Assembly: GCA_903857265.1 (NCBI GenBank)
Contig: CAIODZ010000056.1
Location: 16,081 to 80,080 of the forward strand
DNA: 64,000 nt
Source of the DNA: an uncultured Phycisphaerales bacterium
GTDB lineage: Bacteria > Planctomycetota > Phycisphaerae > Sedimentisphaerales > Anaerobacaceae
Direction of reading: 5' to 3'
Shown here: in pieces, positions 4,237-44,616 of the stretch
Numbering within the stretch: the stretch's first letter is position 1
Layout of the letters: each line of letters starts with the position of its first letter
Notes under the pieces: model-generated
The model's database searches: none
Told to the model about the DNA's origin: nothing
The model's input: the letters and a program-made list of their open reading frames with translations, nothing else
Made by a program: the position numbers and the translations under genes

Positions 4237-5241
4237 TTAAACGGCTTTTGGGCCATGTTCGCCGGCAATGTTTTTCAGTTCGTCGGCAGTGGGGGATATT
4301 ATTTCATCCTGTTTGAACATATAAACGCCGGCGGGATAATTACCAATGTCCGGCGAAAGTTTCTGCCCTTTGCATAAGGCAATCAGCTTGGCGGGGAAAT
4401 CGGCTCCGCACAGATGCGAGCAGGGATAGCCGCCTCCAAAACGCGGATTAACCTCCAGCAACATTGGGCCATTTTTACCTATTTTGACATCTGCATCGGC
4501 CGGCCCAAACATGGGAAAGGCCTGGGCAATTTTAACACCCAAATCCATAAGTTTTTTATCGTTGACGCTGACCGCTTTATCAGTTTCGCCTGCCCGCATA
4601 GCAATTTTCTGCTTGCAGAAAACACTAACGGGTTTGAAATCGCCGTCGCAGAAGATATCGTAACCGTATTCCTCGCCGGAAACAAATTCCTGAATCAATG
4701 GCCTCGGGCAGTTCTGAAATGCCAGTTTCAGCTCGCTTTCATTGTGACAACAATTGATAAACATCGATGCGCTGCCCTTTCGTGGCTTTACCATAACGGG
4801 CCAGGACAGTTTCCCATCGGCGATAAGCTTAAGGGCATCTTTTATAGTCGTAACCGTTTCAGGGGTGGCAATACCCGCCTGTTTTGCGTGAATATAAGTT
4901 TGATATTTATCGAAAGTGATTTCAATAGTTTTGGCAGGTGAAACTACCGCCATAATGCCTTTGCTGCGGAACTCGTCACGCTGTGGCGCAAGAACTTCCA
5001 GAGTAGGGTCTATCAGCGGCACGACCATATCAATCTTGTTTTTAATGCACAGAGAGAGGAGTTTATCGGCATAGTCTGCTGCCTCCACCTTCTGCGCCAG
5101 CATAACATTGTCGCAATATCGGAACGCAGGGGTATAAGGACTGATGTCCGACCCCCATACTTCGCCGGCATCTCCTAATGCCTGCTTGAAGTACTTTACC
5201 AGATAACCACGTCTCCCAACGCTGGAAAGCAAAATACGCAT
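4237..5241 (-). CDS. ATP-grasp ligase, carbamoyl-phosphate-synthase-like
   Basis: 334 residues. A pre-ATP-grasp Rossmann domain (1-110, starting MRILLSSVGRRGYLVKYF) is followed by an ATP-grasp fold: WPVMVKPRKGSAS for phosphate binding near residue 150, LIQEFVSGEEYGYDIF near 185, and the Mg-binding LLEVNPRFGGG near 262. Such stand-alone ligases join a carboxylate to an amine or another nucleophile through an acyl-phosphate. Those near capsule loci are thought to make amide decorations of sugars; that role is inferred here from proximity to the WecA-like gene and the polysaccharide locus. Substrate unknown. Confidence 0.75.
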   Translation of the reverse strand: MRILLSSVGRRGYLVKYFKQALGDAGEVWGSDISPYTPAFRYCDNVMLAQKVEAADYADKLLSLCIKNKIDMVVPLIDPTLEVLAPQRDEFRSKGIMAVVSPAKTIEITFDKYQTYIHAKQAGIATPETVTTIKDALKLIADGKLSWPVMVKPRKGSASMFINCCHNESELKLAFQNCPRPLIQEFVSGEEYGYDIFCDGDFKPVSVFCKQKIAMRAGETDKAVSVNDKKLMDLGVKIAQAFPMFGPADADVKIGKNGPMLLEVNPRFGGGYPCSHLCGADFPAKLIALCKGQKLSPDIGNYPAGVYMFKQDEIISPTADELKNIAGEHGPKAV

Positions 5242-5465
5242 TTACGATTCGTTCCCTGTATTACGCATAAATCTGGACTGTTAGACGCATCTGGCGGCTG
5301 TTTATTGCAATTTTCCACCCAGCAGCCACCACATACTAATCTGCCCGCGGATTATATATCAAAATCGCATAGTGTGCAAAGGTTTTTTCTGGACGAGTCA
5401 GCGTAAAATTGTAGAATCTTATATGATGGGCAATGGAAGGTTTTGTGCTTGAATGAGGATTTAGC

Positions 5466-6665
5466 GTGAACGATATGTTAAACGAACTGCTTGGGCCTAA
5501 AAGGCCGCTCGACTGGTCTGTTCAGTTTTGGCCCGTCCTGTTATCGTCTTTTGCCTGTGCGTTGATTGCCACGTGGTTATGCAAAGCGATTGCGCTTCGG
5601 TTCAACATAGTTGACAAACCGGACGACTTTGTCAAAACACATAAAAAACCCGTTGCTTACCTTGGCGGCGTCGGGGTGTTAATCGGTTTTTTCGTCGGTA
5701 TATTGTGCAGTATTTATCTTGTTCGCAATGAACCCATTCTGCCAATAGTAATGCGGCGGTTTTTCGGTGTAATTGCCGGGGCCGCTATATCCTGTTTCGT
5801 TGGCATTATCGATGACATTTTCAATATCAGTCCTGCGAAAAAGATACTCGGTCAGATTCTTGCGGCTGTGCCCATTATGCAGGCAGGAATCCTGCCGGAC
5901 TTTAGCGAAATTGTCGGGCCTTTTGGCTGGCAGATGTCGGATGCCACCGAAATAGCGATTGGTATTCCGGTCGTTATTTTTTTTGTTATTGGCGCGACCA
6001 ACTCGCTAAATCTTTTAGACGGGCTTGATGGTCTCTGCGGCGGAGTAACTGTTATAATTACAGTCGGAATGTTTTTGCTTGCGATCCAGCGTTCCACTTT
6101 CGCATTCAGCGACCAGGGTGATATTGTCAGAGTTGTAGTTTGTCTTGCCCTGGTAGGCGGAGTTCTCGGTTTTCTGCCCTTTAATCGGTATCCCGCCAAG
6201 ATTTTTATGGGTGATGCGGGCTCCATGCTGCTCGGGTTTGTCGTCGCAGCAATGATGATGATGTTCGCCCGTAAAGCTCCGCGATGGTGGATTGCCGCTA
6301 TAATAGTGTTCGGACTGCCGATAGTGGATACAGGCACCGCTTTGTTAAGACGACTGCTCAACAAAAGGCCATTGTTTGTCTCGGACCGCGGCCACATTTA
6401 TGACCAGATGATTGACAGGGGCATATCCCTGAAACGAACGGTTGGTATATGCTATCTGCTGGCCGGCCTGTATGCATTAGCGGGCCTTTTAACCTCTATG
6501 CTTTCGACGCCGTATAACCTAATTCCATTAACTGTGATTTTTGTCGTATCGTTTTTAGTTGTTTGGTGGATGGGTTTTCTGAAAATGGAGGGCCTGCGAG
6601 GAGCAAAGCGAAAAAACGTCAGCGATGCTCAAAGTGGTCCGTCCGAGCTACACACACATTACTGA
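5466..6665 (+). CDS. Polytopic phosphoglycosyl transferase (WecA/TagO/MraY superfamily)
   Basis: 399 residues, about 10-11 membrane helices. Motifs of the UDP-sugar:undecaprenyl-phosphate sugar-1-phosphate transferases are in order: DDFVKTHKKPVAYLGG, GIIDDIFNISPAKK (Asp pair), NSLNLLDGLDGL, FMGDAGSMLLGF and FVSDRGHIYDQMIDRG, the last equivalent to the HxxH loop. It would load GlcNAc-1-P or a similar sugar phosphate on the lipid carrier to initiate a polysaccharide. It begins at a GTG with an in-frame ATG three codons later. It is the first of a two-gene plus-strand run with the HAD phosphatase, facing the main minus-strand polysaccharide locus. Confidence 0.88.
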   Translation: MNDMLNELLGPKRPLDWSVQFWPVLLSSFACALIATWLCKAIALRFNIVDKPDDFVKTHKKPVAYLGGVGVLIGFFVGILCSIYLVRNEPILPIVMRRFFGVIAGAAISCFVGIIDDIFNISPAKKILGQILAAVPIMQAGILPDFSEIVGPFGWQMSDATEIAIGIPVVIFFVIGATNSLNLLDGLDGLCGGVTVIITVGMFLLAIQRSTFAFSDQGDIVRVVVCLALVGGVLGFLPFNRYPAKIFMGDAGSMLLGFVVAAMMMMFARKAPRWWIAAIIVFGLPIVDTGTALLRRLLNKRPLFVSDRGHIYDQMIDRGISLKRTVGICYLLAGLYALAGLLTSMLSTPYNLIPLTVIFVVSFLVVWWMGFLKMEGLRGAKRKNVSDAQSGPSELHTHY

Positions 6666-43264: not shown

Positions 43265-43361
43265 AATTCTCGTGCTTATAACACATTAAGCCGCAATATG
43301 CAATCCCGCCGGATGATTAGTAGTGTCCTAATTTTTGAAAATTTACACTAAAACAAGAAAT

Positions 43362-43745
43362 TTATTGCGGGTGATTAGTGATGATTATCTTCGTCTTGCA
43401 TTCGGGGCAAATCGCACTACTACCGTAATCTGTAATGACGTGTATGGCCTTGCCATCCAACTCAAAACAACGCGGGCAATAAGAAGCTTTCTCGATTTTA
43501 CCATCCGCATCCTTGGCCCAGTACACATTACCGAAGAGGAACATCCTTCCCGCTTTTATTGCAGCGTCTTTGGCAAGTTGCTTCTCTGTTTCTTCCAGCC
43601 TGCTTTGCGTTTCAGAAAGCTTTTGTTGGAGTTCGAGGTACTTGTTTATGCTGGCTACTTTGGCAAGATTAGCGGGGAGGGCTATGAGTTGTTTAAGCCA
43701 CACCCAGATTATATTGAGAAGGCCCATTGCATTATCCCTGAACAT
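43362..43745 (-). CDS. Small orphan protein with C-terminal zinc ribbon
   Basis: 127 residues. An N-terminal hydrophobic/amphipathic region (MGLLNIIWVWLKQLIALP), a central Gln/Glu-rich coiled coil (about residues 35-65), and a C-terminal CPRCFEL...CPECKTKI zinc ribbon (C-x2-C, 29 residues apart). A downstream ATG (MGLLNI) with AGGGA upstream is an alternative start. Lies between copies of the AGTGTCCTAATTT repeat, so probably acquired. No homologue recognised; function unknown. Confidence 0.6.
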   Translation of the reverse strand: MFRDNAMGLLNIIWVWLKQLIALPANLAKVASINKYLELQQKLSETQSRLEETEKQLAKDAAIKAGRMFLFGNVYWAKDADGKIEKASYCPRCFELDGKAIHVITDYGSSAICPECKTKIIITNHPQ

Positions 43746-43869
43746 TAAATGAATGTAGCCTAATATAGCAGGTTTTAGCTTTTTGACAAGTAAAGATGGG
43801 TGTTGGTAGTGTCCTAATTTGAAAATAAATGCTTTACGGGGCCTATATGCTTGTTTATGCTTTTAGGGT

Positions 43870-44439
43870 ATGTCCGGCTTTCTTCAATACTATTGGGATG
43901 TTTTCTGCTTGGCCTTTCAGGGGGCTTGGGCAATTACTGAAGTTATTGCGGGCGTTATTGCGATTATTGGTGGTTTTATCGTATGGAAGCGTCCAGGCTG
44001 GGAATCAACTATGAAAAATTTACTATGGATGATTCCCGTGGGTATTTTTACTTTATTGTTACTCATAAGGTTGGCAATAGCCCCATATACCATACATCAA
44101 AATCAACAACAGCAAATAATTGAATTGCAAAAGAGAGAAGAAGTGGCAATGACTTCTAAGCAAGACATAAGGTCTTTTCTTGAATCTATCAATCCGGAAA
44201 TTTTAAAAAAAATAGATGTAGGACAAAAAGAAATTCGTATATTTATTGGCAAACCAAACGCAATGAAACTGGTTGATTTTTCCACATATCCAAACTTCTA
44301 TAAGTTTTTATTTTTCCAGCAGAGTGATGACAAAACTTTTCCAGACCTTCCAAAAGATGGTTTTATAAATCAATTAGACGCAAATGAAGTTTGGTTGTAC
44401 GGATATTATCTTTACCCAAGAGATGCGATTAAAAAATAA
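43870..44439 (+). CDS. Orphan membrane protein inside the inverted-repeat unit
   Basis: 189 residues. Two N-terminal membrane helices (AITEVIAGVIAIIGGFIVW and LLWMIPVGIFTLLLLIRLAI), then a Gln-rich coiled-coil stretch (about residues 78-95) and a soluble C-terminal domain (about 100-189) of unknown fold. Bounded by near-perfect inverted repeats (43807 and 44509-44524). Base composition is more AT-rich than neighbouring genes. The opposite frames carry no better coding sequence. Function unknown. Confidence 0.6.
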   Translation: MSGFLQYYWDVFCLAFQGAWAITEVIAGVIAIIGGFIVWKRPGWESTMKNLLWMIPVGIFTLLLLIRLAIAPYTIHQNQQQQIIELQKREEVAMTSKQDIRSFLESINPEILKKIDVGQKEIRIFIGKPNAMKLVDFSTYPNFYKFLFFQQSDDKTFPDLPKDGFINQLDANEVWLYGYYLYPRDAIKK

Positions 44440-44616
44440 CAAAGATTTAAGGCTTGAAAGAGTCAACCCCATTCCCATCGTCCGTCTTATGCTTTAGTAA
44501 TTATTTTATTCAAATTAGGACACTGCCGGAGGATTATTGATTCCCAAAAACAACCCAATAATGTATGATTACTTTTTTAGATAAGATATGGAACCCAGGT
44601 TTTGAAAGGTTTATCA

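What the first reader, a model, noticed from the sequence alone, without database searches (positions are those of the whole stretch)
43308..44536. Possible undescribed non-autonomous element carrying two orphan genes
A repeat of about 16 bp (core AGTGTCCTAATTT) is present three times and the outer segment is flanked by near-identical 12-bp direct repeats (GCCGGATGATTA and GCCGGAGGATTA). Two small genes with no recognised homologues lie between the copies, in an AT-rich stretch, with no transposase. Each gene sits after one copy of the repeat, as if the repeat delimits cassettes. This resembles a MITE or a cassette array and fits a mobile unit acting in trans.
Basis: partly seen in the sequence, partly recalled or inferred. 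Interest (0 to 1): 0.7.

Follow-up and report, generated by a model that had tools for sequence, protein, structure and literature searches.

The report
Transposase-less two-gene mobile insertion cassette
In a bacterial chromosome, a 1.2-kb segment with two small genes lies between end repeats of the kind used by IS1-family jumping genes and near-identical copies of an 8-base target, is absent at the same place in a sister species, and is likely a mobile cassette that a transposase made elsewhere would have to move.

Summary
The repeat is a terminal inverted repeat (TIR), GGTAGTGTCCTAATTTG: two copies point right (43319, 43805), one left (44511-44527). The "12-bp repeats" contain an 8-bp target duplication, GGATGATT/GGAGGATT. 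A same-genus genome has the empty site with one copy.

The same TIR bounds elements in at least five phyla. Of 33 nearest TIR pairs, 25 have a target duplication, against 1 of 1056 mismatched flank pairs. Of 36 elements with a duplication, 14 encode an IS1-family transposase or a piece of it; 22 do not. The window's draft genome shows no such transposase and no further exact repeat copy.

So this is a non-autonomous IS1-type mobile insertion cassette. The internal TIR is best explained (inferred) by nesting: one element entered another, then the outer left and inner right ends moved together.

The genes are not orphans. Gene 1 has 23 further relatives; one sits between IS1595-type ends. Parts of gene 2 match passengers of IS1595-type elements in a sister species. 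So related cargo rides two transposon families.

Side finding: such elements repeatedly sit exactly 8 bp from another element's end.

The parts
43311..43318 (.). left copy of the 8-bp target duplication, GGATGATT
   Evidence: 7 of 8 identical to 44528-44535; single GGGGGATT at the empty site of G194
43319..43335 (+). outer left terminal inverted repeat (AGTAGTGTCCTAATTTT, 2 mismatches to the consensus)
   Evidence: same ends in 33 nearest inverted pairs in other loci
43362..43745 (-). gene 1: 127 aa, predicted long helix plus a small four-cysteine beta domain (zinc-ribbon-like, inferred)
   Evidence: 24 rows of relatives; C90, C93, C113, C116 invariant in the 23 sequences aligned; model mean pLDDT 80.7
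43762..43789 (-). promoter-like site upstream of gene 1 (TTGTCA, 16 nt, TATATT)
   Evidence: 10 of 12 consensus matches, but 3 sites found in the region against 4.6 expected in shuffles, so no evidence by itself
43771..43803 (.). stretch 88% alike to the inside of an IS1-type element of a same-family genome (L283 4481-4514); the likeness stops at the middle TIR
43805..43821 (+). middle terminal inverted repeat, perfect 17 of 17; left end of the inner element B
   Evidence: forms a 24-nt inverted repeat with 44504-44527
43870..44439 (+). gene 2: 189 aa, two hydrophobic helices near the N-terminus (starts about 21 and 52) and a C-terminal domain of unknown fold
   Evidence: relatives
44511..44527 (-). 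right terminal inverted repeat (GGCAGTGTCCTAATTTG read on the minus strand, 1 mismatch)
44528..44535 (.). right copy of the 8-bp target duplication, GGAGGATT

Best explanation
The segment 43319-44527 is a transposase-less insertion with IS1-type ends that carries two passenger genes, likely moved in trans by an IS1-family transposase and likely assembled from two nested elements. Shown: the IS1-type ends, a target duplication matching at 7 of 8 positions, an empty site in a same-genus genome, no transposase inside, and no match to this transposase group in the draft genome. Inferred: an element A (left TIR, gene 1 and its upstream region, then more) received an element B (TIR, gene 2, TIR) just upstream of gene 1; a transposase then paired A's left end with B's right end and placed the joint 1,209-bp unit between prfB and a membrane-protein gene, leaving A's remainder behind. 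Also inferred: such cargo passes between IS1-type and IS1595-type vehicles, because relatives of both genes lie inside IS1595-type elements of related genomes.
For: Ends and duplication. Empty site. Same ends with target duplications in 25 of 33 nearest pairs, against 1 of 1056 mismatched flank pairs. 14 of 36 duplication-bearing elements hold the transposase or a piece of it, 22 do not. The transposase is IS1-type: over the Pfam DDE_Tnp_IS1 cut-off in 3 of 3 tested and in L283. No match in the own genome, matches in 17 of 89 genomes of the family including it. Nesting: L075 holds an inner element inside an outer one, each with its own 8-of-8 duplication; 43771-43803 resembles the inside of an IS1-type element and the likeness stops at the middle TIR (39.5 bits, 1 of 200 control pieces scored higher). 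Cargo: the G405 relative of gene 1 lies between IS1595-type ends; all 4 matches to gene 2 in G280 lie in IS1595-type elements with 8-of-8 duplications.
Against: Movement was not shown, and the draft genome is 94.28% complete, so a transposase could be missed. The target copies differ by one base and the outer ends by 1-2, so the element is not recent. 8 of the 33 nearest pairs have no duplication. The 8 bp before the middle TIR (TGGGTGTT) occur there only as a presumed old duplication; its other copy was not found. The 33-bp likeness is short, and one control piece scored higher. NCBIfam's IS1 model is the best hit for all 4 transposases tested but only L241 passes its cut-off. Gene 2 relatives in G194 and G116 show neither end type, so the gene is not always in such an element. 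The match of gene 2 to the C99 passenger is weak (E 1e-4).
Confidence: 0.72

Rival explanations
1. Two elements inserted one after the other at the same site (duplication, A, duplication, B, duplication), and A's right end with the middle duplication later decayed or was deleted.
For: Such arrays exist: L214 and L283 show the same 8 bp three times; L185 has the same order of ends as the window (TIR right, TIR right, TIR left) with a decayed right end of A (5 mismatches) at the expected place.
Against: The middle 8 bp TGGGTGTT match the outer copies at only 3-4 of 8 positions while the adjacent middle TIR is perfect. No decayed right TIR with up to 5 mismatches lies left of the middle TIR.
Confidence: 0.25
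2. One element only: the whole 1,209 bp is a single old cassette and the middle TIR is a chance or captured solo repeat that serves, for example, as a promoter or spacer.
For: The outer ends and outer duplication are enough to define one insertion.
Against: The middle TIR is the best of the three (17 of 17) and its inverted-repeat match with the right end extends over 24 nt; an exact 13-nt core occurs nowhere else in the genome.
Confidence: 0.1
3. An integron-like or other site-specific cassette array in which each repeat is a recombination site.
Against: The third copy is inverted and the insertion has a target duplication and an empty site; larger members of the family encode a DDE transposase. 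An integrase gene or attC site was not searched for.
Confidence: 0.02

Closest known systems
Mobile insertion cassettes (MICs), e.g. MIC231 of Bacillus cereus (name seen in the reference list of PMC2266710; MICs described in passages of PMC3129680)
   Same: IS-type ends, no transposase of its own, cargo genes; can be activated by a cognate transposase (passage of PMC3129680)
   Different: IS1-type ends, three TIRs and two cargo genes; cargo relatives also found under IS1595-type ends. That MIC231 has IS231 (IS4-family) ends is recalled
Transporter IS (tIS): IS with passenger genes (passages of PMC3129680 and PMC9330008)
   Same: Passenger genes between IS ends; relatives of gene 2 are such passengers in IS1595-type elements of G280
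   Different: This one has no transposase
IS1 family
   Same: TIR-sharing elements encode a transposase over the Pfam DDE_Tnp_IS1 cut-off
   Different: Window element has no transposase; of four transposases tested only L241 passes NCBIfam's cut-off; passengers and sizes up to 3.4 kb
IS1595 family (8-bp duplications; passage of PMC8101967)
   Same: 8-bp duplication; related cargo
   Different: Other ends (GGGAATTATRCACTTGACAAAG) and another transposase family, PF12762
MITEs
   Same: Non-autonomous, TIRs, target duplication; several short elements with the same ends (151-257 bp) fit
   Different: 1,209 bp with two reading frames that have relatives

Membership tests
Mobile insertion cassette | no transposase inside | tested here: met
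   reading frames and Pfam; transposase profile finds nothing in the genome
Mobile insertion cassette | ends shared with an autonomous IS | tested here: met
   same 17-nt ends in 14 duplication-bearing elements with the IS1-type transposase or a piece of it, none of them in this genome
Mobile insertion cassette | cargo genes unrelated to transposition | tested here: met
   two reading frames with relatives; no transposase-type hit above cut-off
Mobile insertion cassette | mobilised in trans | not testable with these tools
   needs a transposition assay
IS1 family | encodes an IS1-type DDE transposase | tested here: not met
   not in the window element; met by other elements with these ends. 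The element is therefore not filed as an IS1-family IS
IS1 family | target duplication of about 8-9 bp (length recalled) | tested here: met
   8 bp with 7 matches, 9-bp reading possible; 22 of 33 nearest pairs with 8 bp and 3 with 9 bp elsewhere
IS1595 family | IS1595-type ends or transposase | tested here: not met
   the IS1595 ends do not occur in the window within 5 mismatches of 22
MITE | short and non-coding | tested here: not met
   1,209 bp, two reading frames with relatives
Integron-type cassette array | site-specific recombination without target duplication | tested here: not met
   near-identical 8-bp duplication and empty site

The most novel reading that the evidence does not exclude
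Bacteria run a cassette-shuffling system with ordinary DDE transposases in place of an integrase: small gene cassettes stack by inserting into exactly the 8 bp that abut a resident element's end or by nesting, are re-cut into new multi-gene units by pairing ends of different elements, and the same kinds of cargo genes pass between IS1-type and IS1595-type vehicles. The window's element is a product of that process.
Probability: 0.25. Interest if true: 0.75.

Novelty: new variant of a known kind. Interest (0 to 1): 0.5.

Why it matters
It gives a concrete, testable route by which cassettes without a transposase could gain several genes: nested insertion followed by pairing of ends from different elements. 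Related cargo under two different end types suggests that the cargo itself is worth carrying. The exact 8-bp abutment of neighbouring elements makes a direct prediction about how transposases of this IS1-type group choose targets.

Tried and rejected
Function of the proteins: Pfam, NCBIfam and PADLOC gave nothing above cut-off for the two genes (PADLOC listed no family at E 0.05 for either). The gene 1 model had no PDB match at E 0.001 or better; the gene 2 model was too poor to search (mean pLDDT 54.4). Gene 1 was not found in viral contigs (57 stretches matched a pattern, none confirmed) or in plasmid records. Other copies of the whole element in the own genome: none. A fuzzy TIR search of the own genome (21-mer, up to 3 mismatches) gave only the window's two plus-strand copies, and 1 match to the reversed control. 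An exact 14-mer search of 397 genomes of the class matched 3, the own one included; the other two (L005, L006) show a single copy each and were not followed.

An early guess, not written to the notebook, that these ends were IS1595-type was wrong: the own-genome IS1595 element has other ends. A likeness between 43783-43799 and the inner flank of the G405 IS1595-type TIR was dropped as a clue to the vehicle: the orientation is wrong and the stretch overlaps the promoter-like site of gene 1.

One junction of 11 bp (L265) came from a search made for such junctions.

Literature: eight searches listed no paper that I recognised as describing this TIR or IS1-type cassettes of this kind. Only open-licence PMC papers are held, so this is weak. 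Of six papers passages were seen, of the rest listings and starts of abstracts; none was read whole.

Rows dropped: from the 36-element census two outer spans over arrays (L214 1684-3652, L185 4154-5245). The census was chosen on having a duplication (7 of 8 or 8 of 9) and ends with at most 3 mismatches, so its proportions are not those of all copies. In alignment A1 two of the 24 rows (P0004, P0027) were left out.

Full report
What was claimed. A 13-nt repeat present three times, near-identical 12-bp flanks, two genes without homologues and no transposase, read as a MITE or cassette array acting in trans.

What is there. The repeat is the terminal inverted repeat GGTAGTGTCCTAATTTG. Copies: 43319-43335 (+, 2 mismatches), 43805-43821 (+, 0) and 44511-44527 (-, 1). 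The last two extend to a 24-nt inverted repeat, 88% complementary. Outside the outer pair lie GGATGATT (43311-43318) and GGAGGATT (44528-44535), 7 of 8. A same-genus genome, G194, aligns with the window up to the left copy and resumes at the right copy, with a single GGGGGATT between. G232 also lacks the segment between the matching flanks; in G280 only the left flank matches and another gene follows. So 43319-44527 (1,209 bp) is an insertion between prfB and a gene for a membrane-type protein (no Pfam family above cut-off).

The family. Many single matches of the 14-mer will be chance; the inverted pairs are not. Elements with ends and a target duplication lie in records titled as Acidobacteria, Verrucomicrobia, Proteobacteria, Armatimonadetes and Bacteroidetes. 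In the 241 stretches examined, 33 nearest inverted pairs have at most one mismatch per end. Of these, 25 have a duplication (22 of 8 bp with 7 or 8 matches, 3 of 9 bp with 8 or 9) and 8 do not; flanks of different elements match at 7 or more of 8 in 1 of 1056 pairings. With looser ends (up to 3 mismatches) and a duplication required, 36 elements of 151 to 3,385 bp were examined: 14 contain the transposase or a piece of it, 22 do not. The transposase passes the Pfam cut-off for DDE_Tnp_IS1 in three of three tested and in L283 (24.7 against 24.1 bits). NCBIfam's IS1 model is the best hit for all four tested, but only L241 passes its cut-off. In one search, 7249 relatives of one transposase were found; the 120 listed carry PF03400, and many are named 'IS1 family transposase' by their sources.

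The partner. The transposase profile finds nothing at E 0.001 in the window's genome and something in 17 of 89 genomes of its family, 7 of which reach E 1e-50 or better. The genome has the three exact TIR cores and no more. If the element moves, it must be by a transposase from elsewhere or by one in the part missing from the draft (completeness 94.28%). Movement itself is not shown.

Why three ends. Nested pairs exist: in L075 an inner pair with duplication TTGTAGTT lies inside an outer pair with duplication GCCGGGTG. If a transposase paired the outer left with the inner right end of such a pair, the product would be TIR, cargo, TIR, cargo, TIR, as in the window. The stretch left of the middle TIR (43771-43803) is 88% alike over 34 columns to 4481-4514 of L283, inside an IS1-type element of a same-family genome (G414), and the likeness stops at the middle TIR. 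The match scores 39.5 bits; 1 of 200 GC-matched control pieces scored higher. In L283 the stretch lies upstream of a minus-strand gene predicted as tRNA-Ser, in the window upstream of minus-strand gene 1, so both could be the upstream region of a left-end, minus-strand passenger. This supports the nesting model and does not prove it. The rival, two insertions at one site with later loss of the middle junction, remains possible: L185 has that order of ends with a decayed middle one. But the 8 bp before the window's middle TIR (TGGGTGTT) match the outer copies at only 3-4 positions.

The cargo, gene 1. The 127-aa protein has 24 rows, one 98% identical over its full length and 23 others at 56-80%. 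C90, C93, C113 and C116 are invariant in the 23 sequences aligned; the model is a long helix followed by a small beta domain. Apart from the own genome, 3 of 160 genomes of the order and 5 of 396 of a class sample have a match, most of them distant. The closest, in G405 (62% over 120 aa), lies in an 843-bp element with no transposase-like frame, with the TIR GGGAATTATRCACTTGACAAAG and the duplication TAATTTTG/TAATTTTT. The same TIR bounds an IS1595 element of the window's own genome (G000 C10; duplication CTCAAAAT twice; transposase over the PF12762 cut-off), which itself carries a 236-aa membrane-type passenger. For the other matches in those two searches no such ends were found where looked for (L280-L282 for the IS1595-type end; L412 for both); L413-L415 were not looked at.

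The cargo, gene 2. Besides its own record, the protein search gave 2 relatives. Apart from the own genome, 3 of 160 genomes of the order match. In same-genus G280 four places match, and all four lie in IS1595-type elements with 8-of-8 duplications: three with a transposase (alike by sequence to the one in the own genome; not run against Pfam) and one, C99, without. The relation is modular: gene 2 residues 1-73 match the passengers of C83 (44%) and C50 (36%), residues 6-60 that of C2 (29%), residues 96-189 proteins of G194 (41%) and G116 (36%), and residues 97-153 that of C99 (30%, E 1e-4). In G194 and G116 neither end type was found around the gene. So relatives of both cargo genes ride IS1595-type elements in related genomes, while here both lie between IS1-type ends.

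Abutting elements. Among 264 distinct ends with at most 2 mismatches, the facing heptamer of another element lies exactly 8 bp outside in 4 (three junctions: L019, L054, and L214 seen from both sides), at 30 bp in 1, and at no other spacing from 0 to 40; about 0.016 is expected per spacing. With one mismatch allowed, spacing 8 gives 5 and the next highest, spacing 1, gives 3 (expected 0.35). Two more 8-bp junctions came from the transposase search (L283, L447). In L214, L283, L447 and L025/L054 the first element is flanked by the same 8 bp on both sides and the next element's end follows at once (L025 and L054 are neighbouring pieces of one contig). In L019 the flanks of the first element do not match, one junction is 11 bp (L265), and the bare heptamer scan shows no peak. 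The likely reading is insertion into exactly the 8 bp that abut a resident end.

Verdict. A new variant of a known kind: a mobile insertion cassette with IS1-type ends, two cargo genes and an extra internal end. The insertion and the family of ends are shown; mobilisation in trans, nesting and cargo trading are inferred.

Noticed in passing
L214 2472-2493; L283 4115-6851; L447 2254-5895; L025 12164-12188 with L054 2188-2220: IS1-type elements abut another element's left end with exactly 8 bp between, and the 8 bp equal the first element's target duplication; ends of different subtypes are combined.
   Followed up: partly
L283 4390-4462: A gene predicted as tRNA-Ser (anticodon ACT) lies inside an IS1-type element with transposase, next to an SDH-type serine protease gene (4831-5751) as passenger.
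   Followed up: no
L416, L417, L419, L442 (G280) and L284 (G000): IS1595-type elements of this genus have a regular layout: a membrane-type passenger whose end meets the start of the transposase gene; two of them (L417, L442) add a small coiled-coil, cysteine-rich protein gene on the other strand.
   Followed up: partly
L412 1474-1836: A distant gene 1 relative overlaps the 3' end of a gene that looks like a type I restriction methylase subunit (named from its sequence, not searched); PADLOC gives a weak LmuB match (E 9.4e-07).
   Followed up: no
L041, L161, L163, L173, L185, L206, L222, L233, L248: A protein of about 91-128 aa recurs as passenger in nine of the elements with these ends; the two tested gave no Pfam match.
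   Followed up: no
L010 8659-10798: A 2,140-bp transposase-less element with these ends in a viral contig carries a DNA methylase (N6_N4_Mtase).
   Followed up: no
L408 359-1348 and 1492-2064: In G116 a gene 2 relative lies next to an SDH/Clp-type serine protease gene, the same protease type as in the IS1-type element of G414.
   Followed up: no
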